Assembly (NCBI GenBank): GCA_012798435.1
Contig: JAAZNF010000040.1
Location: forward strand, 1 to 51,346
Length of the DNA: 51,346 bases
Direction: 5' to 3'
From: Myxococcales bacterium
GTDB taxonomy: Bacteria; Myxococcota; B64-G9
The notes under the pieces are model-generated. The model was not told the DNA's origin. It saw nothing but the letters and a program-made list of their open reading frames with translations, and did not search any database. Shown here piece by piece: positions 1 to 18,282 of this stretch. The position numbers and the translations under genes are program-made. How positions within the stretch are numbered: the first letter of the stretch is position 1; every line of letters starts with the position of its first letter.

Positions 1-114
1 AATGATTCGGAGAAGTGATTGTCAGATGCGAGCGGTATCATCAGGTCGCCATGCGACTTCGGCCCGAAACACGGAACATGGAAAGTGGAACCCGGAACCC
101 GCCTTTCCCCTGGT

Positions 115-144
115 TTGACCGGCGGGAAATCAGGGTGGTACTTT
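115..144 (+). promoter_or_regulatory. Possible promoter of the defence operon
   Basis: A TTGACC box at 115-120 is followed after 18 bases by TACTTT at 139-144, about 50 bases before the helicase start. The -10 match is only 4 of 6, so this is tentative. Nothing else was recognised in bases 1-192, and no gene is seen there. Confidence 0.3.
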
Positions 145-192: not shown

Positions 193-3100
193 ATGGCTCG
201 TCTCGAGGACCTGAAGCCGCAAGCAGTCATCAAGGGCATCGTGCCGGATGCGTTCGTGACCGTAGTGAGCGTCCAGTGGTACGGCTCAGATGCTGTGGAG
301 CTAACCTACAAGGATCCGGCTGGTAAAGTCGCAAACCAATTGCTCTACCGACACGATGAACCCCGGCTTGAAGTCGGCGAAGTAGGCCGGCCCTGGAGTT
401 TTGAGGGCGATGGCTTGCTGTTCAGACTTGTCTCGGAAGCCAACCGGATCCGGCTCGCCTACCTGTTCGACCCGGTTTTGGCCGTGCACACATCACTGGT
501 GGATCCACTTCCTCACCAGATCACCGCGGTGTACGAGACGATGCTGCCCCGACAGCCGTTGCGCTTTTTGCTTGCGGACGATCCGGGCGCCGGCAAGACC
601 ATCATGGCCGGGCTGCTCATTAAAGAACTCATGGCTCGAGGAGATCTGAAGCGGTGTCTGGTCGTGTGCCCAGGGGCGCTGACCGAGCAGTGGCAAGAAG
701 AACTCTACAAACGATTCCATCTGCCCTTCGAGATCTTGACCAACGACAAGCTGGAAGCGGCCCGGACCGGCAACTGGTTCATGGAGAACGACCTGGTCAT
801 CGCCCGGTTGGACAAGCTCTCCCGGAACCCCGATGTGCAGGAGAAGGCCACCGCTCCCGATTGCCGCTGGGACTTCGTCGTGTGCGACGAGGCGCACAAG
901 ATGTCGGCGAGCTTCTTCGGCGGCGAAATCAGCTACACCAAACGGTACCGTCTGGGGCAAAAGCTCTCCGGTGTCACCCGCCATTTCCTGCTCATGACGG
1001 CCACGCCGCACAACGGCAAGGAAGAGGACTTTCAACTCTTCATGGCCTTGCTGGACGGTGACCGTTTCGAAGGCAAGTTTAGGGACGGCGTGCACACCGC
1101 GGATGTGTCGGATCTCATGCGCCGGATGGTAAAGGAGAAGCTCCTCAAGTTCGACTGCACGCCGCTGTTCCCCGAGCGCATCGCCTACACAGTGCCCTTC
1201 AAGCTGTCTGACGCCGAGACCCGCTTGTACCACGAGGTCACGACCTACGTGCGGGAGGAGTTCAACCGCGCTGACGCCCTACAGAACGACAAGCGCGCCG
1301 GCACAGTCGGCTTCGCACTGACCGTGTTGCAGCGCCGGCTGGCCTCGTCGCCCGAGGCCATCGGTCAGTCGCTGAAACGCCGCCGGGAACGGTTGGAAAA
1401 AAGGCTGCGCGAGATCGAAGTCCTCCAGCGAGGCGCCGCCATCGCCGCCATGGAAGAGAGCCAGAGTGCGCTCGAACCGGACGACGTCGAGGACTTGGAG
1501 GAGGCTCCTGAAGACGAGGTGATCGCCGCCGAGGAACGGGTGTTGGATCAGGCGACCGCCGCCCGCTCCATCGAGGAACTCCGGGCGGAAATCGCCACCC
1601 TGGCCAGGCTCGAGTCCCTGGTGCCCGCGATCCCCAAGGGCGCCCAGGACACCAAGTGGAACGAGCTGGCCCGGCTGCTACAAGACATTTTCGGGTCGGA
1701 GCGACCCGCCGAGGAGACGCGCGAGACTCCGCCCCCCTACGGTTCCGGCGACATCCCGCCGCCACGGCCGTCGCCGAACGAGAAGCTGGTAATCTTCACC
1801 GAGCATCGCGACACGCTCAACTACCTGGAGCGGCGCATCGTTACCCTGCTCGGCCGCAGCGACGCGGTGGTGACCATCCACGGTGGTATGGGACGGCAAG
1901 AGCGAACCCGGGCCAAGGAGGCCTTCCTCCACGACCCGAGGGTCCGGGTACTGGTCGCCACCGACGCCGCTGGCGAGGGTATCAACCTGCAACGTGCCCA
2001 TCTGATGGTGAACTACGATCTGCCGTGGAACCCCAACCGCATCGAGCAACGCTTCGGACGCATCCACCGCATCGGGCAGACCGAGGTGTGCCACTTATGG
2101 AACCTGGTGGCGACCGAAACCCGCGAGGGAGACGTCTACCAGACCTTGCTCAAGAAACTCGAGGAAGCGCGGCGCGCCCTGGGTGGGCAGGTCTTCGACG
2201 TGCTGGGTAAGCTCCAGTTCGAGGGCCGGCCCCTGCGCCAACTCATGATCGAGGCCATCCGCTACGGCGAGTCCCCCGAGGTCCGCGCTCGCCTCAACCA
2301 GGTCGTCGAGAGCACTTTTCAGCACGAGCACCTCCGGGACCTGTTGGAAGAGCGGGCGCTGGCGCAAGACAACATGGATTCGCGGGTGGTGTCGCGGGTC
2401 CGCGCCGACATGGAGCGCGCCGAGGCGCGCCGCCTCCAACCGCATTACATCCAGTCGTTCTTTCTGGAAGCCTTCCGCCGCCTGGGAGGAAGCGCGCACG
2501 AACGGGAACCGCGTCGTTTCGAGATCACGCACGTCCCCGCGGTGGTGCGCAACCGGGACCGGCTAATCGGCATCCGCGAGCCGGTGCTCCAGCGCTATGA
2601 GCGCATCGCTTTCGAAAAAACGCTGCTGAGCCCACCGGGGCAACCGCTGGCGGCGTTTGTGTGTCCCGGCCACCCGCTGCTCGACGCCACCATCGATCTG
2701 ACCCTCGAAAGGTATCGCGATCTCTTACGCCGCGGCGCGCTGCTGGTGGACGACCAGGACGCCGGGACTTCGCCGCGGGTGATCTGCTACCTCGAACACG
2801 CCATCCAGGACGCCACCCTCACCGCCTCGGGCGAGAAGCGTTGTGTGTCGAAGCGGATGCTGTACGTGGAGATTGACGCTTCCGGCGCGGCGCGCCATCT
2901 AGACTACGCGCCTTACCTCGACCTGCGGCCCTTGCGCGCCGATGAGCCCGGCGTCGACGCCATCCTGGCCCGTCCCGAGTGCGGCTGGATCGGTGCAGAG
3001 ATCGAGCGTCGGGCCCTCGGGCACGCGGTGGCGAACATTGTGCCGGCGCATCTCCAGGAGGTCCGCGAGCGGCGCTGGCAATGGATCGAGAAGGCCCGGG

Positions 3101-3771
3101 TCGCGGTCAAGGAACGGCTCACCAAGGAGATCGCCTACTGGGATCACCGCGCCCAGGAACTCAAGCTCCAGGAGCAGGCCGGGCGAGTGAACGCCCGGCT
3201 GAATTCGCAGGAAGCGCTAAAGCGCGCAGACGACCTGTCCGCCCGGCTGCAAAAACGGCTTTCCGATCTGGACCGAGAGGCGCAGCTTTCGCCGCTCCCG
3301 CCAGTGGTGCTCGGCGCCCTGGTGGTGGTACCGGCGGGCCTGCTGGCGATCATGGGCGGGCGGTCCTTTCCGGCCGAGGCATCCGCCCTTGACCGGCAGG
3401 CCGCGGCCGAGCGGGCCCGGGCGATAGTGATGGACATCGAGCGCGGCCTCGGCTTCGAGCCCGTTGACCGGGAGAAGGACAAGTGCGGCTACGACATCGA
3501 GAGCCGTGATCCCAGGACGGGCAAGCTGCGCTTCATCGAGGTCAAGGGGCGGACCGCGGAGGCGGCGACCCTTACGGTGACCCGCAACGAGATACTGTAC
3601 TCGTTGAACAAGCCCGACGACTTCATCCTGGCCATCGTGGAGTTATTGCCGGACGGCGCGCATCGCGTGCGCTACCTGCGCCGGCCATTCCAGCGCGAGC
3701 CGGACTTCGGCGTGACCAGCGTAAACTACGACCTGGGCGAGTTGCTCGCGCGAGCGGAGGAGCCGAGATGA
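193..3771 (+). CDS. SNF2/SWI2-type helicase with C-terminal DUF3883 domain (DISARM-like)
   Basis: A 1192-residue superfamily 2 helicase, probably the DNA-translocating motor of a phage-defence cassette. Walker A is DDPGAGKT with K135; the Walker B/DEAH box is at 232-235; motif III MTATP is near 268-272; motif V TDAAGEG is at 590-596; motif [13 protein letters not shown], with its arginine fingers, is at 619-629. An acidic insertion at about 400-470 separates the two RecA lobes. The C-terminus (about 1070-1165) looks like DUF3883, with D1101 followed by E1116-V-K1118, a spacing like PD-(D/E)XK nucleases, so it may cut or bind DNA. This architecture resembles DrmD of class 1 DISARM. The ATG is preceded by a weak GGGAGC ribosome site. 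The stop overlaps the next start as ATGA, so the two are translationally coupled. Helicase identity is certain; the defence role is inferred from family and neighbours. Confidence 0.9.
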
Positions 3772-6650
3772 CCTATAAAAAGAAACTCATCGAAGTCGCT
3801 CTGCCGCTCGAAGCCATCAACAAGGCCAGCGCGCGGGAGAAGTCCATCCGCCACGGCCATCCGAGCACGCTGCATCTGTGGTGGGCGCGGCGTCAGCTGG
3901 CCGCGGCGCGGGCGGTGATCTTCGCCCAGATGGTGGACGACCCGTCCTCGCTGTCGGACCTGTTCCCGACTGCGAAGGCGCAGGAAAAAGAGCGCCTGCG
4001 GCTCTTTCGCATCATCGAGGACCTGGTGCAGTGGGAAAACACCACGAACGAGGATGTGCTGGCCCGCGCGCGCGACGAGATCTGGCAGAGCTGGAAGTAC
4101 ACCTGCACCGAGCACGTCGATCACCCGCGCGCTAAGGAGCTGTTCGACCGTAAGAAGCTCCCCGCCTTCCACGATCCTTTTGCCGGCGGCGGCGCGCTGC
4201 CGCTGGAGGCGCAGCGGCTCGGGCTCGAAGCCTATGCGAGCGACTTGAACCCGGTGGCGGTGCTCATCAACAAGGCGATGATCGAGATCCCGCCCCGGTT
4301 CGCGGGCATGCCGCCGGTGAACCCAGAGTCGCGCAAGAACAAGGACCTCTTTGCCAACGAGTGGAAGGGCGCCCAGGGCCTGGCCGAGGACGTGCGCTAC
4401 TACGGGAAGTGGATGCGCGACGAGGCCGAGCGGCGCATCGGGCATCTCTATCCCAAGATCGAGATCACCAAGGAGATGGCGAAGGAGCGGCCGGACCTCA
4501 AGCCCTACCTGGGCAAAAAGCTCACGGTGATCGCCTGGCTGTGGGCGCGCACGGTCAAAAGCCCCAACCCGGCCTTCGCCCACGTGGACGTGCCGCTTGC
4601 CTCGACCTTCATGCTCTCCACCAAGGCGGGCAAGGAGGCCTATGTCGAGCCGGTCATCGAAAACGGTGGCTACCGCTTTACGGTCAAGGTGGGCAAGCCC
4701 AAGGATGTGGAAGCGGCAAAGAACGGCACCAAGCTCGCACGTGGTGCGAACTTCCGTTGCCTGATGTCGGGGACGCCGATCGCGGGCGACTACATCAAGG
4801 CCGAGGGCCGGGCCGGTCGCATGGGCGCGCGGCTCATGGCCATCGTCGCCGAAGGCGCGCGCGGGCGCGTGTATCTTGCGCCAACACCGGAACACGAGGC
4901 GGCCGCGCTCAAGGCAAAGCCGAGGTGGAAGCCGGAGGGTGAAGTTCCCGCGCGACTCACGGGCGGGACGTGCGTGCCCTACGGTCTCTCGACTTGGGCG
5001 GACCTCTTCACCCCCCGCCAGCTCGTGGCACTCACGACCTTCTCGGACCTGGTGGGCGAGGCGATGCAGCAGGTAAAGCGCGACGCCCTGGCAGCGGGCC
5101 TCCCCGACGACGGCGTCCCTCTTCGTGATGGCGGCACCGGCGCCACCGCCTACGCCGAGGCGGTGGGGGTGTATTTGGCCATGGCAGTCGACTATGGCGC
5201 GAACTACTGGTCCGTGATCACGACGCCAGCGGAAGGTTTCATTCGGGGCACATTCGCGCGACAGGCGCTCCCGATGACGTGGGATTACGCCGAGGCGCCA
5301 CCATTCGGCGGAACGAGCGGCAACTGGATGGCCGGCGTCGAGTGGGCCTGCAAAGCGATGGAGGCGTTTCCGTCGAGAAGTGCAGGCTTGGCAGCGCAGG
5401 CCGATGCCGCGGTTCAAAGCGTCAGTCGCGGCAAAGTAATTTCTACCGACCCACCTTACTACGATAACATCGGCTACGCGGATCTCTCGGACTTCTTTTA
5501 CGTCTGGCTGCGCCGCGCGCTCAAAGGCGTCTATCCCGACCTGTTTGCCACGCTCGCCGTGCCCAAGGCCGAGGAGCTCGTGGCCACCCCCTACCGCCAC
5601 GGCAGCAAGGAAAAGGCCGAGGCCTTCTTCATGGACGGCATGACGCGGGCCATGCACCGCCTCGCCGAGCAGGCGCACCCGGCCTTCCCGGTCACCATCT
5701 ACTATGCCTTCAAGCAGTCGGAAAGCGAAAGCAACGAAGGCACGGCCAGCACGGGTTGGGAGACCTTCCTCGAGGCCGTGATCCGTGCAGGCTTCGGTAT
5801 CAGCGGCACCTGGCCGATGCGTACCGAGCGCAACGCTCGATCCACCGGCATCGGTACCAACGCCCTCGCCTCGAGCATTGTCCTTGTCTGCCGCCCGCGG
5901 GGAGCAAATGCCCCCACCGCCACCCGCCGCGAGTTCCTCTCGGCCTTGAAGGCCGAGCTGCCCGCAGCGCTCGCGCACCTGCAGCAGAGCAACATCGCCC
6001 CGGTGGACCTGGCGCAAGCAGCCATCGGCCCGGGCATGGCGATCTACACGCGGTATTCCAAGGTCCTCGACGCCCAGGGCAAGCCGGTTTCGGTGCGTGA
6101 CGCGCTCGCCCTCATCAACCAGATCCTCGACGAGACCCTGGCCTCCCAGGAAGGCGACCTCGACGCCGACAGCCGCTTCGCCATGGCCTGGTTCGATCAA
6201 AACGGCTTCGAGCCCGGCGAGTTCGGCGTGGCCGAGACGCTCTCCAAGGCCAAGAACACCAGCATCAGCGGCCTGGTCGAAGCGGGCATCCTCGAGTCGA
6301 AGCGCGGCAAGGTCCGCCTAATCCGGCCGAAGGAGCTGCCCGCCGACTGGGACCCGGCCACCGACCGGCGCCTGACCGTGTGGGAGATGGTCCACCACCT
6401 GATCCGGGTCCTCGATTCCGGTGGCGAGAGCGCCGCGGCCGAACTTGCACGCAAGCTCGGCAGCAAGGCCGAGACGGCGCGCGAGCTGGCCTACCGGCTC
6501 TACACAATGTGCGAGCGCAAGAAGCGCGCGCCGGAAGCCCTGGCCTACAACGCCCTGGTGCAAAGCTGGCCGGAGATCTCCCGATTGGCCAGTGGTGCCG
6601 CAAAGCAGAAGCCGGGCCAGGCGGACATGTTCGCGCGACACGAGGAGTGA
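3768..6650 (+). CDS. DUF1156 adenine-N6 DNA methyltransferase
   Basis: A 960-residue protein whose N-terminus (about 1-70, with the [12 protein letters not shown] signature) matches the DUF1156 family. The SAM-binding motif is DPFAGGG at 136-142, and the catalytic motif IV is DPPY at 561-564, followed by [16 protein letters not shown]. This order and the DPPY tetrad are those of amino-methyltransferases that make N6-methyladenine. The roughly 420 residues between the motifs are long and may hold target recognition. It begins in an ATGA overlap with the helicase, with GGAGGAG five bases upstream of the start, and is followed three bases later by the DUF499 gene. Its likely job is to mark self DNA so that the helicase and ATPase act on unmodified DNA; that role is inference. 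The enzyme class is well supported, the target site is unknown. Confidence 0.9.
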
Positions 6651-6653
6651 GCG

Positions 6654-9600
6654 ATGGCCATGACCAATCACGATCGCGTCGGCAAGGCGCTGGAACTGCT
6701 CCGGGACGGCCTGGCGCCATACGCGGAGCGCGAGTTCGAAAGTCTCTACCCGTCCAAGGCGCAGGCCGAGGCGCAGCGTTTCATGGGCGAAGAGCGGCCG
6801 GCGGCCAAGAAACCGGTGGCCAAGTGGGACGCCGGAGCGTTGCTCAAGCTCATGTGGGAGGCCTGGAACGACGTCTTCCGCCGCACCCTGGGTCCGGCCG
6901 AGCGCACCCTGGTCCGCGAGCTTCGGGACGTGCGCAACCAGTGGGCGCACCAGGAGACTTTTTCCAGCGACGACGCCTACCGGGCCCTGGATTCCGCCAC
7001 CCGCTTGCTCACCGCCGTCTCCGCACCGCAGGCCGAGGAGGCCGAGCGACTGAAGATGGAACTCCTGCGCCTGCGCTTCGACGAGCATGTGCGCACCGAG
7101 AAGCGGAAGAGCGCGAGCACGACCATCGAGGCGACGACGCAGGGCAACGTCAAGCCCTGGCGGGAGGTGGTGACGCCGCACCCGGACGTGGCCAGCGGGC
7201 GGTACCAACAGGCGGAGTTCGCCGCCGATCTGTGGCAGGTCCATCTGAACGAGGGAAGCGACGAGTACAAGGACCCGGTGGAGTTCTTTCGCCGCACCTA
7301 CCTCACGGAGAGCCTGCGGCGTCTGTTGGTGGGCGCGGTGTCGCGCCTTTCGGGTTCGGGCGGCGATCCGGTGGTGCAGCTCCAGACCAACTTCGGCGGC
7401 GGCAAGACCCACTCGATGCTGGCGTTGTTCCACCTGTTCTCGGGCCGTGCCCCGAGCGAGCTGCCCGGGGTGGACGCGCTCATGGCCGAGGCCGGAGTGA
7501 AGAGTATCCCCCAGGCGAGGCGTGTGGTCATCGTGGGCAACCGCATCTCGCCGGGAAATCCGATGACCAAACCGGACGGCACGGTTGTGCGGACGCTGTG
7601 GGGCGAGATGGCCTGGCAGCTCGGCGGCAAGAAGGCCTACGCCAAGGTGAAGCTGGACGATCAAAAGGGCACCAGCCCGGGCGATCGCTTGCGCGAGCTT
7701 TTCAAGGAGTACGGGCCTTGCCTCATCCTGGTCGACGAGTGGGTGGCCTATGCGCGCCAGCTCCACGACAATAGCGACCTGGTGGGCGGAAGTTTCGAGA
7801 CCCAGTTCACCTTCGCCCAGGCGTTGACCGAGTCCGCCAAGCTCGCCAAGAACTGCCTGCTGGTCATCAGCCTGCCGGCCTCCGACACGGCCGTCTCGCC
7901 GCACGCCCAGGCCGATGATGTGGAGGTGGGCGGCAGCCGCGGCCGGGATGCGCTGGACCGCCTGCGCAACGTGATCGGCCGGATCGAATCCCCGTGGCGA
8001 CCCGCCAGCGCCGAGGAGGGGTTCGAGATCGTGCGCCGGCGGCTTTTCGAGCCGCTGGCCGGACCCGAGAAATTCAAGGAGCGCGACGTGTGCGCGCGCG
8101 CTTTCGCGGATCTGTACAAGGCGCACAAACAGGAGTTCCCGCCCGAGTGCGGGGACAGCGATTACGAAAAGCGCATCCGCGCGGCCTACCCGATCCACCC
8201 CGAGGTCTTCGATCGGCTCTACACGGACTGGTCGACGCTGGTGAAGTTCCAGCGCACCCGCGGCGGGTTGCGCCTGATGGCGACCGTGATCCACTCCTTG
8301 TGGGAGAAGGGCGACCGTAGCCCGCTCATCCTACCCGCGCTCATCCCCATCGACGAGCCCCAGGTGCAGTTCGAGCTCAACCGCTACCTGTCGGACAACT
8401 GGGGTCCGGTCATCGACAAGGACGTCGATGGCCCGGGGTCGTTGCCGCTGCGCTTGGACAGCGAGATTTCGAACCTTGGCAAGTACTCCGCTTGCCGCCG
8501 GGTGGCGCGGGTGATCTACCTCGGCTCCGCGCCGACCGCGACCGCGGCACATCAGGGGATCGAGGACCGTCGCATCAAGCTCGGCTGTGTGATGCCCGGC
8601 GAGTCGCCCGCCATCTTTGGCGATGCCTTGCGGCGGCTGGGTGCGGTCGCGACGTACCTGTACCAGGATGGGACACGGTATTGGTATTCCACGCAGCCAA
8701 CGGTCACCAAGCTGGCGGAGGACCGCGCCGAGCAATACAAGCGGGAGCCCGACCGGGTCATCATCGAGCTCGGTAAGCGGCTGCGACAGGATTTGCACAA
8801 GCGGGGCGACTTTGCCAAGGTCCATCCGCTCCCGTCTTCCAGCGCCGACATTCCGGACGAGCTCGAAACCCGGCTGGTAGTCCTGGGATTGGATCATCCC
8901 CACAGCAAGGATGCCGAGAGCCCGGCGATGGCGCAGTCACAGAAAACTCTCGAAACGCGCGGCACTGCGCCCCGCTTGTATCGAAACACGCTCGTTTTTC
9001 TGGCCGCAGACAAAATCCAGATGCAGGATCTGGACGAGGCGATCCGCCGGTTCCTGGCATGGGAGTCCATCTTGCAGGATCGGGAGAAGCTCGATCTCAC
9101 TCCAAATCAGGTGCGACAGGCCGAGGCACAGCGGGACGTGGCGGATAACACCGTCCAGGCACGACTTCCAGAAACCTACAAGTGGTTGCTGATTCCCAAA
9201 CAGAAGTCTCCGCATGACACCGTGCACTGGGAGGCGATCGCCTTGAGCGGGCGGGATGAGCTGGCTGTCCGGGCAAGTAAACGACTGCGAAATGACGAGC
9301 AACTGATCACCATGTTCGCTCCCACCAGCTTGCGAACGGAGCTGGACAACGTGCCCTTGTGGCGGGAAGACCATGTAGCCGTTCGGCAACTGGTGGAGGA
9401 CTTCGCGCGCTACCTGTACTTGCCGCGTCTTTCGGACCCCTCGGTGCTGGTGGCGGCGATACGCGATGGCCTCGGTTTGATCTCCTGGCAGCAGGAGTCC
9501 TTCGCCTATGCGGATGGCTATGACGAGGCGGCGAGAAGGTACCGTGGCCTGAGAGCCGGAAAGCCCGTCAACATCCAGGGACCTGATGCGCCGGGCTTGT

Positions 9601-9989
9601 TGGTGAAACCGGAAGTGGCGATAATGCAGCTCCATGCCGAATCCGCACCGCCATCGTCCAAGTCCGGGGATGTTCAGGCGCCACATGCTTCTACGACTGT
9701 GGATGGAGAACCAGGGAAAGCGCCCGAACCGGGAAAGCACTTCGCTCCAACCCGCCCGAAGCGTTTCCACGGAACGGTGACGCTCGATCCTACCCGGATG
9801 GGCAGGGACGCCGGGCGCATCGCCGAAGAGGTCGTCTCGCACCTGGTGGCGCAGCAGGGCGCCGAGGTCAGAGTCACACTGGAGATCGAGGCGAGCATCC
9901 CTGGCGGTGCGAGCGAACAGGTGGTGCGGACGGTGATGGAGAATTGCCGAACGATGAAGTTTTCGAACCAGGGGTTCGAGGAGGAGTAG
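6654..9989 (+). CDS. DUF499 P-loop ATPase with N-terminal Swt1/HEPN-like domain
   Basis: A 1111-residue AAA-like ATPase of the DUF499 type. The first 125 residues (starting MTNHDRVGKALELL) look like the Swt1/HEPN-type domain that often precedes such ATPases. Walker A is GGGKT at 248-252 (K251) and Walker B is LILVDE ending at D361-E362. The C-terminus carries the RVTLEIEASIPGG stretch seen in this family. DUF499 ATPases occur next to DUF1156 methylases and SNF2 helicases in defence islands and, as I recall, are related to the BREX BrxC/PglY ATPases. The start lies three bases after the methylase stop, with GAGGAG just upstream; a second ATG at 6660 is possible. No strong RNase motif (RxxxxH) was identified in the N-terminal domain, so nuclease activity is not claimed. 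Substrate and mechanism are unknown. Confidence 0.88.
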   Translation: MAMTNHDRVGKALELLRDGLAPYAEREFESLYPSKAQAEAQRFMGEERPAAKKPVAKWDAGALLKLMWEAWNDVFRRTLGPAERTLVRELRDVRNQWAHQETFSSDDAYRALDSATRLLTAVSAPQAEEAERLKMELLRLRFDEHVRTEKRKSASTTIEATTQGNVKPWREVVTPHPDVASGRYQQAEFAADLWQVHLNEGSDEYKDPVEFFRRTYLTESLRRLLVGAVSRLSGSGGDPVVQLQTNFGGGKTHSMLALFHLFSGRAPSELPGVDALMAEAGVKSIPQARRVVIVGNRISPGNPMTKPDGTVVRTLWGEMAWQLGGKKAYAKVKLDDQKGTSPGDRLRELFKEYGPCLILVDEWVAYARQLHDNSDLVGGSFETQFTFAQALTESAKLAKNCLLVISLPASDTAVSPHAQADDVEVGGSRGRDALDRLRNVIGRIESPWRPASAEEGFEIVRRRLFEPLAGPEKFKERDVCARAFADLYKAHKQEFPPECGDSDYEKRIRAAYPIHPEVFDRLYTDWSTLVKFQRTRGGLRLMATVIHSLWEKGDRSPLILPALIPIDEPQVQFELNRYLSDNWGPVIDKDVDGPGSLPLRLDSEISNLGKYSACRRVARVIYLGSAPTATAAHQGIEDRRIKLGCVMPGESPAIFGDALRRLGAVATYLYQDGTRYWYSTQPTVTKLAEDRAEQYKREPDRVIIELGKRLRQDLHKRGDFAKVHPLPSSSADIPDELETRLVVLGLDHPHSKDAESPAMAQSQKTLETRGTAPRLYRNTLVFLAADKIQMQDLDEAIRRFLAWESILQDREKLDLTPNQVRQAEAQRDVADNTVQARLPETYKWLLIPKQKSPHDTVHWEAIALSGRDELAVRASKRLRNDEQLITMFAPTSLRTELDNVPLWREDHVAVRQLVEDFARYLYLPRLSDPSVLVAAIRDGLGLISWQQESFAYADGYDEAARRYRGLRAGKPVNIQGPDAPGLLVKPEVAIMQLHAESAPPSSKSGDVQAPHASTTVDGEPGKAPEPGKHFAPTRPKRFHGTVTLDPTRMGRDAGRIAEEVVSHLVAQQGAEVRVTLEIEASIPGGASEQVVRTVMENCRTMKFSNQGFEEE

Positions 9990-10066
9990 CGGTATTTCCA
10001 TTCGTCCCAACCAGATTCAGCAAATCGTGGCCTTGGTAGTCAGGTGGTAAGGGACAGGTCGCGACC

Positions 10067-10615
10067 ATGCCGAAAATGCGCATCATTACACTTTCCCGGC
10101 TGAACCGCGCCGTAAGCCGCGTTCAAGACGAGCTGATCCGCCACGGGTTCTGGGACGACACCTTGAGCGACGTCGATGTATATCTGGTGCCCTTGGGGAC
10201 CGCCCTCGGCTGGCAACTCAACGACGGCAGCGGCGAGATCAGGATCCCCTTGGCGTCTCTCTCGCGGCTCGGCGAAGTCTTTCGCGGATGCTACACCCCT
10301 CTTGCGGACGTTTTGCGCCACGAGTACGGCCACGCCATCGCGGACACCCACCGGGGGTTGTTCCGCGCCCGCCGCTTCAGTTCCGCCTTCGGGGCGACCT
10401 ACCAGAACGACACGGAGTGGGAGTTCGACCCGGAGTGCCACGTCAGCGAGTACGCGGCAAAGAGCGCCTGCGAGGATTTCGCCGAGGTGTTCATGCTGTT
10501 TCTTCGGCACCGCGGCCGGCTGCCGCAGAAGTTCGACACGCCGACGATCCGGGACAAGTGGAAGTTCGTACGGGAGCTGGGCGCGGTCTTGCGCGAGGGG
10601 CGGGCCCGTTGGTGA
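10067..10615 (+). CDS. Small zinc metallopeptidase (HEYGH), defence-linked
   Basis: A 182-residue zincin-like protein. The zinc site is HEYGH at 85-89, with a likely third ligand in the downstream ACEDFAEVF segment (E136 or E140), a pattern shared with putative zinc-binding metallopeptidases. There is no signal peptide or membrane segment, so it should be cytoplasmic. It lies 77 bases after the DUF499 gene on the same strand with no obvious terminator between, so it may be the fourth gene of the defence cassette and could process or control one of its proteins; that role is inference. A start at the second ATG (10076) would remove three residues. An unrelated bystander gene is the main alternative. 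Confidence 0.75.
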   Translation: MPKMRIITLSRLNRAVSRVQDELIRHGFWDDTLSDVDVYLVPLGTALGWQLNDGSGEIRIPLASLSRLGEVFRGCYTPLADVLRHEYGHAIADTHRGLFRARRFSSAFGATYQNDTEWEFDPECHVSEYAAKSACEDFAEVFMLFLRHRGRLPQKFDTPTIRDKWKFVRELGAVLREGRARW

Positions 10616-10768
10616 GCGAGGGCGTTTTTTCTCGCATCATCGGCACGCGCGGCGAGTGACGATGCAAAGCCCTCTACAAAAAAGCGTTCTGCTTCAAGGT
10701 CGTGGGGGCGGGCGCATTTCCTCCTTGCCAAGCGAGCGCGCCTCAAAGTAGAAAGCGCCGGACGAACG

Positions 10769-10788
10769 GGCCGCGGGTTTTCGCGGCC
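10769..10788. other. Small hairpin before the activase gene
   Basis: GGCCGCG at 10769-10775 pairs with CGCGGCC at 10782-10788 around a six-base loop, ending 19 bases before the activase ATG. There is no T-run on either side, so it is not a typical terminator. It may be an operator or leader structure, or simply a product of high GC. The remainder of the 10616-10807 gap shows nothing I can name. Confidence 0.35.
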
Positions 10789-10807
10789 GCGCAAGGACGG
10801 TGCGCCC

Positions 10808-13800
10808 ATGCAAGAGCGGTTCGTGGGAATCGACGTCGGCTCGGTGAGCGCCAGCGCGGCGGTGGTGGACGGGGCCGGGGACCTGCTCGCCTGGGCCAGC
10901 CGTCCCCACGGCGGCCGGCCGGAGAAGGTCCTCGGCGAGGTCCTGGCCGACCTCGGCGCCGGCGCGGACGTTTTGCGCGCGGCCACCGCCTCCACCGCCC
11001 GGGGCGTCTCGGCCGCTCTGCGCGTCAACGACGTGGTAGCCGCGGTGCGCGCGGCTGAGCGGCTACACCCCGGCCTGGGGGCTCTGCTCGTGGTAGGTGG
11101 AGAGCGCTTCAGCCTCACTCTGTTTCGAGAGGATGGCCGCTACCTCTACACCCGCTACAACACCCTTTGTGCCGCCGGGACCGGGAGCTTTCTGGACCAG
11201 CAGGCGCGACGCCTTGGGCTCGCGGACGCGGCCGAACTGGCTCGGCGGGCGCTGGAGAACCAGGCCGAGCCGCCGCGCATCGCCACCCGTTGCGCGGTGT
11301 TCGCAAAAACCGATCTCATCCACGCCCAGCAGGAAGGACACGCGCTGCCCGCCATCTGCGACGGCCTATGCCGGGGCCTGGCGGCCAATCTTCACGATAC
11401 GCTCTTTGCGGGCGAGGAGGCGCGCGCGCCGGTGGTCTTCGCGGGCGGGGTGGCCCTGAACCGCGCCACCCGGCGCCACTTGGAGGCGCTGTGCGGCTTG
11501 GCCTTCACGGTCGATGAGACGGCGCAGGTATACTGCGCTTACGGGGCGGCTCTCTCCCTGCTCGATGCGACGCGCGGACAGGAGCGTGCGGTAGACATCG
11601 AGGATGTGGTTGCGGCGGAGCCAGCGCCGGCGGCCGCGCGAGCCTACTTCCCGCCGCTCGAGGCCTTGAAGGGACGCTACCCGGATTTCTCGGCGCACCG
11701 AAGCTACGTCTTTTCGCCACGGCAGGTCGCGCTGCCGGAGCCGGTCGAGGTGGACGACTATCGCCCGACCTCGGGAAAGCTCACGGCCTTTTTGGGTATG
11801 GACATCGGCTCGACCTCGACCAAGGCGGTGTTGTTGGGGGAGGGCCAGGAGGCCGAGCCGCCGGTGCTGGCAGGCTTCTACACCCGTACCGCCGGACGTC
11901 CATTGGAGGCGGTGCAGGGAATCTTCGAGGCCGCCCACGATTGGGCAACGAGGTGCGGGGCCGAGCTCGAAGTCCGCGGCGCCGGCACCACCGGCTCGGG
12001 ACGAAAGTTCATCGGTTCATTGGTTCGCGCCGATCTGGTGCTCGACGAGATCACGGCGCACGCGCGCGCGGCGGTGGAGCTGGACCCGTCCGTGGATACT
12101 ATCATCGAGATCGGCGGCCAGGACGCCAAGTTCACGAGCCTGAGCCGCGGTGTGGTCACCCAGTCCATCATGAACCACGTGTGCGCCGCTGGCACCGGCA
12201 GCTTCATCGAGGAGCAGGCCCGCCGCCTGGGTTGCCCGCTCGCCGAAATGGCTGGGCGTACGGAGGGGCGCCGCTCGCCGCTGGCTTCGGACCGCTGCAC
12301 GGTGTTCATGGAGCGCGACCTCAATCAGTTCTTGGCCGAGGGCTACGAACCAAACGAGGTGCTGTGCGCGGTGTTGCACGCGGTGCGTGACAACTACCTG
12401 CTCAAGGTGGCCCGCGAGGGGCACATCGGCCGGCAGGTGTGGTTTCAGGGGGCCACCGCCAAGAACCGTTCGCTGGTGGCCGCCTTTGAGCAGAAGCTCG
12501 AGCGGCCGGTCCACGTCTCGCGCTACTGCCACCTTACCGGCGCCCTGGGCGTGGCCCTGGAGCTGCAAAGCCTGGCCGCCGCCGGCAAGCTCGGCCCCAG
12601 CGCTTTTCGTGGCCTCTCGCTGTACCGGGAGCGCATCCCGGTGCGCGGCGAGGTGTGCACCCTATGCCACAACAACTGCAAGCTGCGTCTGGCCGAGATC
12701 AACGGGCAGACGGTAGGTTTCGGCTACCTGTGTGGCCGGGAGCCTTCCGAACAGCGCTTCGTCTCGGCCAACCGCTCCGGCTTCGATCTGCTGGAGGCCC
12801 GCCGCAAACACTTTGCCTTCGAGCCGCGGCCCGGGCCCGAAAAGATCCTGGTGGGGCTTCCGGCAGCGCTGCACCTCGTGGAAGATTTGCCGTTGTGGCG
12901 GCGTTTCTTCGACGAACTCGGCCTGCGGGTGTTGACCAGCCAGGCGCTCTCGGAGCCGGTCGCGCGCGGCAAGAAACTCACCGGCGCCGAGTTCTGCGCC
13001 CCCATCTCCGCCTGGCACGCGCACGTGGCCTGGCTACTCGAGCGCTGCGATTTCGTGTTCGCACCATTCTATCTCGAGGCCGAGCACCCGCCCGAAGACC
13101 GGCGCCAGTTCTGCTACTACACCCAGTACGCCCCGGCGCTGGCGGGCCAGGCGGTCGGGAACAAAGCCCGCGCGAAGCTGCTCCAGCCGCTGATCCACGT
13201 CGGCCAGCGGAAGTTCAACTCGTACGCACGGCTCCACGCCGCGCTCCAGCCGGTGCTCCAGGGCCGGCTCGGCAGAGACGGCGTCGTCCGCGCATGGGAG
13301 ACCGCCAGCGCCTGGTTCGAGGAGCGGCGCGCGGCCCTGCCAGAAGTCATGCAGCAGGCCCTGGGGGCGAAAGACGACGTCGCGGTAGTGCTGCTGGGTC
13401 GGCCCTACACCGTGCTCTCGCCGGCCATGAACGCCGGCATCCCCGGCATCTTCGGCCGGCTGGGGGTCAAGGCCTTCTCCCAGGACATGCTGCCGCAACA
13501 GGAGCCGGCGGAGCTCCGGGCGCTGCTGCGCGCCTCCAAGTGGTTCCAGAGCCGGCGCATCTTCGCCGCCGCGGATGCGGTCGGCCGGACCGACGGGCTG
13601 TACCCGGTGCTGCTCACCTCCTTCAAGTGCACCCCGGACGCCTGCACCATGGAGTACATCCGGCGCATCCTGGACGCCCACCAGAAGCCCTACCTGGTGC
13701 TCCAGCTCGACGAGCACGACTCGCGAGTGGGCTACGAGACCCGCATCGAGGCGGCCCTGCGGGCGTTTCGCAACCACCGGCAGGGTTCACGGCCCCGCAC

Positions 13801-15076
13801 GGACCAGGCCCAGCTCTCGCGGGTGCCGGTTCGCATCAAGCGGGCCGGCGGGCGCACGGTGTTCGTGCCGCCCTGGGACACCCTGGGCACGCGGCTGTTC
13901 ACGGCGGTGCTGCGCCGGACGGGCGCGGACGCGCGGCTGATCCCGGAAACCCCCACGCTGATCCGTGAGAGCCTGGGCCACAACACCGGCCAGTGCCTGC
14001 CGCTGTCCATCATCGTGCACGAGTTCATCCGGGCGGTGCGGCAGGCGAACCTGGACCCGGCGCAGACGGCGCTGTGGATGCCGACCTCCTCCATTGGCTG
14101 CAACATCTGCTTCTTCCCGCAGTACGGAAAGGCCTTGCTGGAGAGCATCGGGGGCGGCTTCGAGAAGGCGGCCATCTACGCCGGGGAACCGAGCTGCCAG
14201 GAGATCTCGGCGAGGGCCATCCTGCACTCCTTCTACGCCTTCACCTTCGCGGGCATGCTGCGCCGCATGATCTGCCGGGTGCGGCCCTACGAGAAGCACC
14301 CGGGCGAAACCGACCGGGCCGCGGCCTGGGCCATGGACCTGTTCGAGCGCACGCTGCTCGAGGATCTGCCCCGGCGCCGTGCGGTGCGGCAAGTGGTGGA
14401 CGCCTTCTTGCAGATCGGCGTGGAGCGAGAGCCGCGCCCGCTGGTGGCCATCTTCGGTGACCTGTACTGCCGAGACAACGACGTGTTCAACCAGGAGCTG
14501 GTGCGGCTCATCGAACGGCACGGCGGAGAGGCCCTGTGCACTCCCTACACCGAGTACACCCGCATCATCGCCGGCCCCTACCTGCGCAAGTGGTGGCGCG
14601 AGGGGTTGTACCGGGACGTCTTGCTCACCGCGCCGTTCGCCATGGGCTTCGAGCTGCTGGAGTACCCCTTCCGTCGTGAGTTCCAGCGGGTGCTGGGGCG
14701 GCGGCCGGTGGTGCGGCGGCGCGATCGCCCCGAGAAGATCCTCTCCCGCTTCGGCGTGAGCATGTTCCACACCGGCGAGAGCTTCGACAACCTGCTCAAG
14801 ATCTTCCACCTCGTCGAACGCTACCCGGAGATCTCGCTCTTCGTGCAGACCAACCCGGCCTTCTGCTGCCCCTCGCTGGTGACCGAGGCCATGGCGAACC
14901 GCATCGAGCGCGAGACGGGCGTGCCGGTGGTCACCGTGACCTACGACGGCACCAGCGCCGACCACAACCAGCGGGTGGTGCCGTACCTGGAGCTGGCGGT
15001 CGGCAAGGCCGGTGGGGTGGGGCGAGCGGCAAATCTGCCCGCGCAAGCTTCGGAGGCCCCGCGCCCGGTCGCGTGA
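10808..15076 (+). CDS. Fused double acyl-CoA dehydratase activase / dehydratase-like Fe-S protein
   Basis: A 1422-residue protein. Two ASKHA-fold BadF/BadG/BcrA/BcrD-type ATPase domains lie in tandem (about 1-255 and 328-590), opening with GIDVGS and MDIGSTSTKA. Each keeps the two cysteines that hold the bridging 4Fe-4S cluster in HgdC-type activases: C121 and C162 in the first, C459 (CAAGTGSF) and C497 in the second. A CxLCxxNC motif at about 616-622 begins the DUF2229-like middle part. The last 400 residues resemble the 2-hydroxyacyl-CoA dehydratase/double-cubane-cluster family, with conserved IGCNICFFPQYG and FCCPS stretches. Such proteins use ATP to push electrons to very low potential. 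The length suits the roughly 1400-residue stand-alone members of this family. Substrate unknown; no dehydratase alpha/beta genes are nearby. It is flanked by convergent minus-strand genes and probably forms its own unit. Confidence 0.88.
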   Translation: MQERFVGIDVGSVSASAAVVDGAGDLLAWASRPHGGRPEKVLGEVLADLGAGADVLRAATASTARGVSAALRVNDVVAAVRAAERLHPGLGALLVVGGERFSLTLFREDGRYLYTRYNTLCAAGTGSFLDQQARRLGLADAAELARRALENQAEPPRIATRCAVFAKTDLIHAQQEGHALPAICDGLCRGLAANLHDTLFAGEEARAPVVFAGGVALNRATRRHLEALCGLAFTVDETAQVYCAYGAALSLLDATRGQERAVDIEDVVAAEPAPAAARAYFPPLEALKGRYPDFSAHRSYVFSPRQVALPEPVEVDDYRPTSGKLTAFLGMDIGSTSTKAVLLGEGQEAEPPVLAGFYTRTAGRPLEAVQGIFEAAHDWATRCGAELEVRGAGTTGSGRKFIGSLVRADLVLDEITAHARAAVELDPSVDTIIEIGGQDAKFTSLSRGVVTQSIMNHVCAAGTGSFIEEQARRLGCPLAEMAGRTEGRRSPLASDRCTVFMERDLNQFLAEGYEPNEVLCAVLHAVRDNYLLKVAREGHIGRQVWFQGATAKNRSLVAAFEQKLERPVHVSRYCHLTGALGVALELQSLAAAGKLGPSAFRGLSLYRERIPVRGEVCTLCHNNCKLRLAEINGQTVGFGYLCGREPSEQRFVSANRSGFDLLEARRKHFAFEPRPGPEKILVGLPAALHLVEDLPLWRRFFDELGLRVLTSQALSEPVARGKKLTGAEFCAPISAWHAHVAWLLERCDFVFAPFYLEAEHPPEDRRQFCYYTQYAPALAGQAVGNKARAKLLQPLIHVGQRKFNSYARLHAALQPVLQGRLGRDGVVRAWETASAWFEERRAALPEVMQQALGAKDDVAVVLLGRPYTVLSPAMNAGIPGIFGRLGVKAFSQDMLPQQEPAELRALLRASKWFQSRRIFAAADAVGRTDGLYPVLLTSFKCTPDACTMEYIRRILDAHQKPYLVLQLDEHDSRVGYETRIEAALRAFRNHRQGSRPRTDQAQLSRVPVRIKRAGGRTVFVPPWDTLGTRLFTAVLRRTGADARLIPETPTLIRESLGHNTGQCLPLSIIVHEFIRAVRQANLDPAQTALWMPTSSIGCNICFFPQYGKALLESIGGGFEKAAIYAGEPSCQEISARAILHSFYAFTFAGMLRRMICRVRPYEKHPGETDRAAAWAMDLFERTLLEDLPRRRAVRQVVDAFLQIGVEREPRPLVAIFGDLYCRDNDVFNQELVRLIERHGGEALCTPYTEYTRIIAGPYLRKWWREGLYRDVLLTAPFAMGFELLEYPFRREFQRVLGRRPVVRRRDRPEKILSRFGVSMFHTGESFDNLLKIFHLVERYPEISLFVQTNPAFCCPSLVTEAMANRIERETGVPVVTVTYDGTSADHNQRVVPYLELAVGKAGGVGRAANLPAQASEAPRPVA

Positions 15077-15100
15077 GCGGGGTTGCGGGCGCGGGCCGCT

Positions 15101-15630
15101 TCAGGGGTACGGGATCTCCTCGAACTCGCCGCGCTTGTTCACCTGGAACATCCCCAGGGAATCGCGCTCGGCGGAACCCTTGCCGCAGGCGGAGGCGGGG
15201 GACTCTCGCAGGAGCTCGAAGTTCCAGGGGAGGTCGTCGGGGCCCGGCGCGAACGGCCCCGTGGCGGGGGCGCGCCGGCGCACCTGGTAGCATTCCGGGT
15301 GCTCGCGCATGTCCGGATAGCGGCACTGGAGGTGCGAAAGCGCGATGGCGTAGGCCTGCTCCTGGGAACGAGGTGTCTCGGAGATCGGGGCGGGGGGACA
15401 CTCGACAACCGTCCGGGAGGTAACGGCGCACCCCGAGAAAGCGCATCCAAGGATCGAGGCGCCGAACAGCGCGACGCAGAACCCAAGAGTCGGCGCCCCG
15501 GGTCGTCGCCCTCGAGTAAGACCCCAACTTGCGATCGAGCGCGCAGGCGTTGCTGGCCCCGCGGCCGGTCGCGCCCGGTGACGGCAGCGCGAGCGAGAAA
15601 CGATTTTCCGGAAGAGACGGCTCATGGACG

Positions 15631-15634
<4 letters not shown>
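15101..15634 (-). CDS. Small Cys-rich exported or lipoprotein, unknown function
   Basis: A 177-residue protein of no recognised family. The hydrophobic segment GFCVALFGASILGCAFSGC near residues 51-69 ends in lipobox-like cysteines, suggesting a lipoprotein. An unusual Arg-rich stretch of about 48 residues precedes it. The start is supported by an ATGA overlap with the stop of the MopE-like gene, so the pair is translationally coupled; no nearer ATG, GTG or TTG lies in frame. The mature part ends in a short region rich in Glu and Pro. It may be a partner of the MopE-like protein on the cell surface, but only gene order supports that. Confidence 0.6.
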
Positions 15635-17028
<1,394 letters not shown>

Positions 17029-17065
17029 CACAGGAGGACTCGCTCCAACTATCCGTTGTGCAATT

Positions 17066-17092
17066 ATTATACTAAAGACAGGACACGGTCAA
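17066..17092 (-). promoter_or_regulatory. Promoter of the MopE-like gene
   Basis: On the minus strand TTGACC (17092-17087) is followed after 15 bases by a perfect TATAAT (17071-17066). The spacer is shorter than ideal, but this is an AT-rich island in high-GC sequence, about 38 bases upstream of the start. Confidence 0.5.
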
Positions 17093-17132
17093 TCGGGCCG
17101 CCCGCACCGCAACGGTTGCACGGGTTGCGCGG

Positions 17133-18173
17133 CTACCGCTGGCGGTCCTGGGAGCGCAGCGTCCAGCCGATGAGCTGGTACAGCACGCGCGCGCCCACGT
17201 TGCCGTCCCACTCGTCGCCGCCGGAGGGAGCCGGGGCCACCTCGCACAGGTCGAAGCCCATGATGGTGCGGCCGCTCTCCACCACCGCCCGCAGCACCTG
17301 GCACGCCTGGAAGAACGAGAGCCCACCGGGCACCGGGGTGCCGGTGTGGGGGCAGAGCGCCGGGTCGAGGCCGTCGATGTCGAACGAGACGTACACCCGC
17401 CTCGGCAGGCTCTCGGCGACGCGGCGCAGCAGGCGGCCCCATCCCCCCTGGGCCTGGAGGGCGCGCTGGAGGTCGCTATCGAAGAAGGTCCGGATCTGGC
17501 CGCGGCTATTCTGGATCAGGCGATATTCCTCCTGGCCGAAGTCGCGGATGCCGAGCTGGACGATGCGCGCCACCCCGGCCAGGCGGGCGAAGGCGTTGAA
17601 CATGATGGAGGCGTGGCTGAAGGTGAAGCCTTCGTAGGCGCGTCGCAAGTCGGCATGGGCATCGAAGTGGAGGATACCCAGGCCGGGAAAGCGTTCGGCG
17701 CAGGCGGCGATGGCTCCATAGGGCACGGCGTGATCCCCGCCCAGGATACCCGGGATGCGGCCTGCCCGCAGCAGGCGATCGGTCTTCGCGAACACCCAGC
17801 GGTTGAGCGACTCGCTTATGCGGTTGACGGCGTCGGCCGCCTTGCGGATCGCTAGCGAACCGTTCTCGGCGCCGCCGGCGGCGATGACCTTCTCGGCGAG
17901 CTTGCGGGCGGCGCGGTTCCATGCGCGGACGCGGCGGTCCTCCGGCATCAGGACGATGCCGGCCTGGTAGGGGCGGCCGATCTCGGGGGCGAAGAGCTCG
18001 ACCTGCCGCGAGGCCTCGAGGATGGCCCGGGGGCCGCGGCTCGTCCCGGCGCGGTAGGAGGTGGTGGCGTCGAAGGGCACGGGCACCAGCACCACCCGCG
18101 CCTTGTCGTTTCGGGTGGGCAGGCCGAAGATGCCCGAGCCGGGCTTTGCGGCGGCATCCGGATCGAAGGTCAT
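17133..18173 (-). CDS. Agmatinase/arginase-family ureohydrolase
   Basis: A 346-residue cytoplasmic enzyme of the ureohydrolase superfamily, which splits guanidino compounds at a dinuclear manganese site. The metal-binding motifs are all present: GGDH at 145-148, DAHAD at 171-175 and SFDIDGLDP at 263-271. A late GFDLCEVAP segment matches the family. The length fits agmatinase-like members, with a longer region between residues 80 and 140 than the shortest enzymes. Agmatine (to putrescine and urea) is the most likely substrate, but arginase or formiminoglutamase activity cannot be excluded from sequence alone. It stands between the MopE-like gene and the divergent cyclase, with about 110 bases separating it from the cyclase start. 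Confidence 0.88.
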   Translation of the reverse strand: MTFDPDAAAKPGSGIFGLPTRNDKARVVLVPVPFDATTSYRAGTSRGPRAILEASRQVELFAPEIGRPYQAGIVLMPEDRRVRAWNRAARKLAEKVIAAGGAENGSLAIRKAADAVNRISESLNRWVFAKTDRLLRAGRIPGILGGDHAVPYGAIAACAERFPGLGILHFDAHADLRRAYEGFTFSHASIMFNAFARLAGVARIVQLGIRDFGQEEYRLIQNSRGQIRTFFDSDLQRALQAQGGWGRLLRRVAESLPRRVYVSFDIDGLDPALCPHTGTPVPGGLSFFQACQVLRAVVESGRTIMGFDLCEVAPAPSGGDEWDGNVGARVLYQLIGWTLRSQDRQR

Positions 18174-18246
18174 GTTTCACCTCGGGTTGGAGTCGGCCGC
18201 AGGGTACAACCGGAGCGCACCCTTGGCAAATGGCGGCATGAATTGC

Positions 18247-18275
18247 TTGGCACCTCGGGAGCGAGAACGTATAAT
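18247..18275 (+). promoter_or_regulatory. Strong sigma-70-like promoter of the cyclase operon
   Basis: TTGGCA (18247-18252), a 17-base spacer and a perfect TATAAT (18270-18275). Transcription would begin near 18282-18283, exactly at the in-frame GTG, predicting a leaderless mRNA. The overlapping string TGGCACC-N4-GAGC (18248-18262) also keeps the sigma-54 GG-N10-GC spacing, but its -12 side is poor, so sigma-70 is preferred. Confidence 0.65.
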
Positions 18276-18282
18276 CCCGCCC

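What the first reader, a model, noticed from the sequence alone, without database searches (positions are those of the whole stretch)
193..10615. DISARM/BREX-like cassette with an added zinc metallopeptidase and no drmA, drmB or drmC
A coupled helicase-DUF3883, DUF1156 methylase and DUF499 ATPase trio is followed by an HEYGH peptidase in one strand run. The trio resembles DISARM-related systems described in recent surveys; I cannot confirm which named type it is. The lack of drmA, drmB and drmC in the window and the presence of a peptidase make it non-canonical and possibly a variant system.
Basis: partly seen in the sequence, partly recalled or inferred. Interest (0 to 1): 0.78.

Follow-up and report, generated by a model that had tools for sequence, protein, structure and literature searches.

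The report
Ordinary Hma defence operon, passenger peptidase
This is a standard, already named bacterial anti-phage operon (Hma, also called Type-1 BREX-related), and the zinc peptidase gene next to it looks like a neighbour rather than an added working part.

Summary
The trio is not DISARM but a complete Hma system, also called a Type-1 DUF499-centred BREX-related (BR) system: its proteins match HmaA, HmaB and HmaC at 1,662, 1,586 and 1,145 bits. Its ATPase carries the HEPN RNase domain reported in 1,370 of 2,446 Type-1 BR taxa (PMC12839542, passages). Catalytic motifs are intact. A 141-base contig overlap shows the genes before base 1; none of 7 scanned is a drm gene. The 182-aa HEYGH protein is a zincin-type peptidase whose predicted fold resembles lethal factor/PPEP (tentative). 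It is not linked to Hma elsewhere: 0 of 33 other Hma loci have it in the 3.9-7 kb after hmaC; of 195 own-phylum genomes 6 have it, 19 have HmaC, only this one both; of 392 Planctomycetota 7 have both against 9.2 expected, always on different contigs. So this is an ordinary defence operon with a neighbouring peptidase; a portable-effector reading remains possible but weak.

The parts
193..3771 (+). hmaA: SNF2-family helicase with C-terminal NOV_C/DUF3883 PD-(D/E)XK-type nuclease domain (aa 1074-1160, bases 3412-3672)
   Evidence: PADLOC HmaA 1661.6 bits over aa 1-1191; Pfam; Walker [16 protein letters not shown] and D...EVK motifs present
3768..6650 (+). hmaB: DUF1156 adenine-type DNA methyltransferase (DUF1156 at aa 11-82; DPPY motif)
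   Evidence: PADLOC HmaB 1585.5 bits; Pfam DUF1156; FAGGG and DPPY
6654..9989 (+). hmaC: DUF499 AAA+ ATPase with N-terminal HEPN domain
   Evidence: PADLOC HmaC 1145.2 bits over aa 165-1110; Walker A GGGKTH, Walker B VDEW
6684..7022 (+). Swt1-like HEPN domain of HmaC with intact R-x4-H (RNQWAH)
   Evidence: PF18731 E 6.8e-37; R-x4-H kept in all 14 of 21 aligned HmaC that reach over this stretch, the window's included
10067..10615 (+). Small zincin-type metallopeptidase (HEYGH at 10319-10333; conserved EDFxE downstream); neighbouring gene, not shown to belong to Hma
   Evidence: Pfam Peptidase_Mx 19.2 bits, below its cut-off of 27; 9-member family alignment; AlphaFold model mean pLDDT 83.8; structural match Z 12.0
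1..141 (.). Exact overlap with the reverse complement of G000:C66:1-141; points to the contig that lies upstream
   Evidence: upstream genes

Best explanation
A complete Hma (Type-1 DUF499-centred BREX-related) restriction-modification-like phage defence operon of the HEPN-fused form. Inferred mechanism, as proposed in print for the family (PMC12839542): HmaB methylates host DNA at adenines as the self mark; HmaC, an ORC/Cdc6-type AAA+ ATPase, assembles a scanning complex; HmaA, helicase plus DUF3883 nuclease, translocates on and cuts unmarked DNA; the HEPN RNase on HmaC is a fallback that cuts cellular RNA if the phage gains ground. Shown here: only the domains, their order and the intact motifs. 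The peptidase 77 bases downstream is most likely a separate gene in the variable slot 3' of hmaC.
For: High-scoring HmaA/B/C matches over most or all of each protein. Gene order, DUF3883 and HEPN fusions match the published description (passages of PMC12839542, PMC3710099, PMC8565338). Catalytic residues intact. The next listed gene 3' of hmaC differs in each of 7 plasmid Hma loci viewed: ATP-binding protein, UvrD helicase, TIR protein, NACHT protein on the other strand, STY4851-type, and, 1.2-1.5 kb on, LacI-type and MerR-type (that gene table is incomplete). PMC12255303 (passage) says that genes of other defence systems, Septu for one, are found embedded in Hma systems. 0 of 33 other Hma loci have the peptidase family 3' of hmaC. 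Own phylum: HmaC in 19 of 195 genomes (11 above 1,000 bits), peptidase in 6 of 195, both only in this genome. Planctomycetota: 58 and 62 of 392, both in 7 (9.2 expected, Fisher p 0.56), all seven on different contigs. HmaC in 0 of 6 records (4 genomes, 2 viral contigs) that hold peptidase homologs.
Against: The peptidase is close (77 bases), on the same strand, and its GC (0.647) is that of the trio (0.649-0.662) rather than of the next gene (0.694), so co-transcription is possible. Its near relatives are few, so a rare local partnership cannot be excluded. A loose pattern scan found HExxH..ExxxE stretches 3' of hmaC in 3 of the 33 other loci (L093, L156, L159); none matches this family's profile and the one in L093 is annotated ImmA/IrrE, but they were not studied further. 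No activity was tested.
Confidence: 0.85

Rival explanations
1. The peptidase is a working accessory effector of this particular Hma system: it is transcribed with hmaC and cleaves a host or phage protein when the ATPase senses infection.
For: Same strand, 77-base gap, similar GC. In other genomes the same family directly follows an AAA+ gene (L033) or a GTPase gene (L034), and in L039 a DUF697 gene behind a YcjX-type GTPase. Catalytic motif conserved in the family.
Against: No second case with Hma in 33 loci. No co-occurrence excess in two phyla. No peptidase is named as a Type-1 BR component in the passages of PMC12839542 that I read.
Confidence: 0.12
2. A DISARM or DISARM-derived variant that lost drmA, drmB and drmC and gained a peptidase.
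For: HmaA scores 396 bits against a DrmD model and 354 bits against NCBIfam DISARM_DrmD.
Against: HmaA model 1661.6 bits, four times higher; the DrmD score is below NCBI's cut-off of 610; HmaB and HmaC hit no DISARM model; no drm genes among the 7 upstream and 20 further window proteins scanned.
Confidence: 0.02

Closest known systems
Hma system (helicase, methylase, ATPase; Payne et al. 2021, PMC8565338, passages read)
   Same: All three proteins, their order, and profile matches over most or all of each.
   Different: Nothing in the core. The downstream peptidase is not part of the described system.
Type-1 DUF499-centred BREX-related (BR) system, HEPN-fused form (PMC12839542, passages read)
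   Same: N-terminal HEPN on the DUF499 ATPase (1,370 of 2,446 taxa there), helicase-REase fusion (79% there), N6-MTase.
   Different: No peptidase is described for Type-1 BR in the passages I read; the word 'peptidase' occurs twice in the main text, both times in one passage on MoxR-vWA systems.
HEPN (Swt1 type)-DUF499 R-M class with SNF2-DUF3883 (PMC3710099, 2013, passages read)
   Same: HEPN-DUF499 fusion and SNF2 helicase-DUF3883 fusion in one operon.
   Different: DUF1156 is not named in the passages read.
Lethal-factor/PPEP-type zincins (fold only)
   Same: Predicted fold of the peptidase: Z 12.0, rmsd 3.0, 155 residues to a lethal factor catalytic domain; about Z 9 to PPEP-1, -2 and -3.
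   Different: 12-17% identity in those rows; the gene encodes only the one domain; Foldseek E-values against PDB were weak (best 0.036); secretion signals were not examined.

Membership tests
Hma / Type-1 BR | Helicase of the HmaA family | tested here: met
   1661.6 bits, aa 1-1191
Hma / Type-1 BR | DUF1156 adenine MTase of the HmaB family | tested here: met
   1585.5 bits, DPPY
Hma / Type-1 BR | DUF499 ATPase of the HmaC family | tested here: met
   1145.2 bits, Walker motifs
Hma / Type-1 BR | Anti-phage activity | not testable with these tools
   Needs a bench test
HEPN-fused Type-1 BR subtype | N-terminal HEPN with R-x4-H on the DUF499 ATPase | tested here: met
   PF18731 E 6.8e-37; RNQWAH
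Type-2 BR | N-terminal HKD/PLD nuclease domain on the helicase | tested here: not met
   No such domain in the Pfam scan of HmaA; PLD_Helicase model only 105.7 bits, best stretch aa 563-660, the helicase core
Type-2 BR | Standalone DUF3780 gene in the locus | tested here: inconclusive
   Not among the 5 window proteins put through Pfam; the other window and upstream genes were not scanned for it
DISARM | drmA, drmB, drmC | tested here: not met
   Not found among 31 proteins scanned, 7 of them on the upstream contig
DISARM | DrmD helicase at the curated cut-off | tested here: not met
   354 bits against a cut-off of 610
BREX proper | pglZ and brxC (DUF6079) | tested here: not met
   No PglZ or BrxC hit in the lists shown for the 31 proteins; the third protein is DUF499
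Peptidase_Mx (PF15887) | Score above Pfam's cut-off | tested here: not met
   19.2 bits against 27; relatives L033 and L034 24.8 and 25.6
Lethal-factor/PPEP-type zincin fold | Shared fold over most of the domain | tested here: inconclusive
   VIA-align Z 12.0 and rows of about 9, but on a predicted model, with weak Foldseek E-values; the tool's own control says models without a clear match reach best Z of 7-8, mostly helical ones about 14

The most novel reading that the evidence does not exclude
The 182-aa zincin is a portable effector or processing peptidase that plugs in behind different P-loop NTPase modules (AAA+ in a Myxococcales element, DUF3482 GTPase with a DO-GTPase2-like gene in Planctomycetes CA13, YcjX/DUF697 in another contig) and is also carried by phages. 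Here it has been taken up by an Hma operon, giving an Hma with a protein-cutting arm beside its DNA- and RNA-cutting arms.
Probability: 0.1. Interest if true: 0.55.

Novelty: new member of a known kind. Interest (0 to 1): 0.17.

Why it matters
As found, it adds one more example of a widespread system and removes a false lead (a DISARM variant with a peptidase). If the portable-peptidase reading were true, it would give NTPase-centred defence systems a shared proteolytic effector that could be tested directly.

Tried and rejected
DISARM variant: rejected on profile scores and missing drm genes. Peptidase as an Hma component: rejected as the main reading for lack of any second case. Insert boundaries by synteny: the CoA-activase gene at 10808 has orthologs in relatives; in the four loci fetched the only match to other genes of the window or of C66 was a partial response-regulator one in L113, so the edges of an insert could not be set; three of those four stretches were cut by contig ends and one query frame (15529-17637) is probably not a gene. 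Codon usage: uninformative; my host set contained some wrong frames. Plasmid and phage records: no peptidase match. Foldseek against PDB and BFVD gave no match at E 0.001 or better; VIA-align re-ranked Foldseek's own list, so families absent from it are not excluded. The association of the peptidase with NTPase neighbours is post hoc: of 8 neighbourhoods looked at (window, L033-L039) 3 follow an NTPase gene directly and a fourth follows a DUF697 gene behind a GTPase; neighbours of L040-L044 and of the Planctomycetota matches were not examined. Rows dropped: 16 of the 18 Planctomycetota HmaC places above 930 bits were used (G416:C38 and G282:C161, partial matches, left out), from 15 genomes; the plasmid loci are 7 of 105 records, chosen by me for variety; L039 (frame broken), L041, L043 and L044 were left out of alignment A2; seven translations (L062, L064, L065, L067, L068, L069, L075) were of the wrong frame or strand and were ignored.

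Full report
What is there. Four + strand open frames at 193-3771, 3768-6650, 6654-9989 and 10067-10615. The first three are tightly packed (4-base overlap, 3-base gap); the fourth starts 77 bases on. A CoA-dehydratase-activase-like gene follows at 10808. The window is contig C88 of a 5.0 Mb, 97% complete assembly and base 1 is the contig edge.

What the trio is. PADLOC-DB gives HmaA 1661.6, HmaB 1585.5 and HmaC 1145.2 bits, each over most or all of the protein. The nearest DISARM model for the helicase, DrmD, gets 396 bits, and NCBIfam's DISARM_DrmD 354 bits against a cut-off of 610.

Published frame. Payne et al. 2021 named Hma, from 1,638 instances (PMC8565338, passages). The HEPN-DUF499 / SNF2-DUF3883 R-M class was noted in 2013 (PMC3710099, passages). 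A 2026 survey calls it the Type-1 BREX-related system, in 2,446 taxa, 1,370 with the HEPN fusion, helicase-nuclease fusion in 79%, and says that an experimental study confirmed the phage defence role of the HmaA helicase (PMC12839542, passages; I did not see that study). The mechanism given above is that survey's proposal; nothing of it was shown here beyond intact motifs. PMC8565338 calls the methylase m5C in its text, while the 2026 survey says N6, the PADLOC model is named DNA-adenine methylase and the DPPY motif fits that.

Integrity. Against loci from the own phylum and from plasmids, the window's proteins keep Walker A, DEAH, helicase motif VI and the D...EVK nuclease motif in HmaA; FAGGG and DPPY in HmaB; Walker A/B and the HEPN R-x4-H in HmaC. 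Of 21 HmaC aligned, the window's included, 14 reach over the HEPN stretch and all 14 keep R-x4-H; of 17 HmaA, EVK is missing in one, L059.

Upstream of base 1. The first 141 bases equal the reverse complement of G000:C66:1-141, and the search of the assembly listed no third place. If the two contigs are neighbours, the genes upstream run away from hmaA: a long lipoprotein-like gene, a second one, a Fpg-like glycosylase, an amidotransferase-like gene and a response regulator (names are my reading of the translations). None of the 7 scanned gives a DISARM or BREX hit; the only hit is the response regulator against SduA at 22 bits.

The peptidase family. H-E-Y-x-H and a later E-D-F-x-E are invariant in 9 aligned members, which are 25-53% identical to the window protein. 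The AlphaFold model (mean pLDDT 83.8, pTM 0.84) aligns to anthrax lethal factor's catalytic domain at Z 12.0 (155 residues, rmsd 3.0, 14% identity), Certhrax at 9.5 and PPEP proteases at about 9. Foldseek alone was weak (best PDB E 0.036, a putative zinc peptidase; viral library best 6.3e-3), and the tool warns that models without a clear match often reach best Z of 7-8, mostly helical ones about 14, so the match is tentative. A shared fold shows no function, and this gene encodes the one domain only. PMC3482391 (passages) lists lethal-factor-type metallopeptidases among bacterial polymorphic toxin domains. Scans gave 5 loci in genomes and 7 in viral contigs (one of the 5, L035, is the G056 copy). 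L038 lies among small phage-type genes, and in L044 the match is at the C-terminus of a 580-aa protein that looks like a phage minor head protein (my reading of the translation).

Does it go with Hma? (a) The 12 loci plus 5 from the genome search (16 distinct places): no HmaA, HmaB or HmaC in the DNA held (up to 10 kb of flank, 1.5 kb for the five, less at contig ends). (b) HmaC in 0 of 6 records holding such loci. (c) Own phylum, 195 genomes: peptidase 6 (two full and close, one broken, three remote), HmaC 19, both 1, the window's own (Fisher p 0.46). (d) Planctomycetota, 392 genomes: 58, 62, both 7, expected 9.2; by the places printed all seven are on different contigs. Of the 58, 55 are remote (E above 1e-10, mostly within larger proteins); the three close ones (G195, G197, G501) are not among the 62 HmaC genomes. 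(e) 33 other Hma loci (10 own phylum, 7 plasmid, 16 Planctomycetota), 3.9-7.0 kb 3' of hmaC: no family member by tblastn at E 0.01 or by profile at E 1; the 10 own-phylum stretches, 16-20 kb each, gave no match to the window peptidase on either side (rows above 45 bits shown). A loose HExxH..ExxxE pattern hit 3 of the 33 (L093, L156, L159). The one in L093, Chlorohelix, is an annotated ImmA/IrrE peptidase 6 kb on; the other two were not studied.

Against my reading. The gap is short, the strand the same, the GC alike. Three of eight peptidase neighbourhoods have an NTPase gene directly before it (window, L033 AAA+, L034 GTPase), and in L039 a GTPase is two genes before. PMC7159879 (passages) describes DO-GTPase systems with variable effectors and, in some, peptidases, and the CA13 locus holds a DO-GTPase2-like gene (27.9 bits, cut-off 27). 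This is why I keep a 0.1 chance for the portable-effector reading.

Not in print? I searched the held papers for DUF499 with peptidase or DUF1156 (2 papers), DUF1156/DUF499/DUF3883 (3 papers) and Hma names (33 papers, 20 listed; 9 papers, 7 listed); I saw no Hma with a metallopeptidase in the passages read. That is a limited search.

Verdict. An ordinary, complete, HEPN-fused Hma operon with a neighbouring peptidase that is most likely a passenger. Interest low.

Noticed in passing
L055 (G000:C94:8001-28000), 8528-19599, - strand: The same genome has a second, divergent DUF499 locus: HmaA-like helicase with NOV_C (591 bits), HmaB-like (398 bits), HmaC-like (348 bits), with a PIN-domain gene and an unmatched 375-aa gene between helicase and methylase.
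   Followed up: partly
L034:8566-13692: In Planctomycetes CA13 the peptidase gene starts 1 base after a DUF3482 GTPase gene and precedes MotA/ExbB-like and DO-GTPase2-like genes, which recalls NTP-dependent conflict systems.
   Followed up: partly
L033:6447-14443: In a Myxococcales MAG the closest peptidase follows PcfJ-like and AAA+ genes, next to a phage integrase and a DUF5906 gene: probably a mobile element.
   Followed up: partly
L044:8501-10243: Viral contig: a 580-aa protein, by eye a phage minor head protein, ends in an RHEYGHA-type zincin stretch.
   Followed up: no
L092 (Thermus oshimai pTHEOS01): No DUF1156 gene is listed between helicase and HEPN-DUF499; an IS4 transposase lies in that stretch and the HmaB frame found is only 494 aa. 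This Hma may have a broken methylase gene; the gene table is incomplete.
   Followed up: no
L093:11503-11871 and L094:11598-11966: A small 'four helix bundle protein' gene lies between hmaB and hmaC in both the Chlorohelix and the Gloeocapsa plasmid.
   Followed up: no
window:18061-19752: Protein with 84 bits to a Pycsar cyclase model over its C-terminal half; probably an ordinary signalling cyclase (my guess).
   Followed up: no
window:43198-43959, - strand: Protein with 84.6 bits to mad3 of the MADS defence set, best stretch aa 132-221; no MADS operon was looked for.
   Followed up: no
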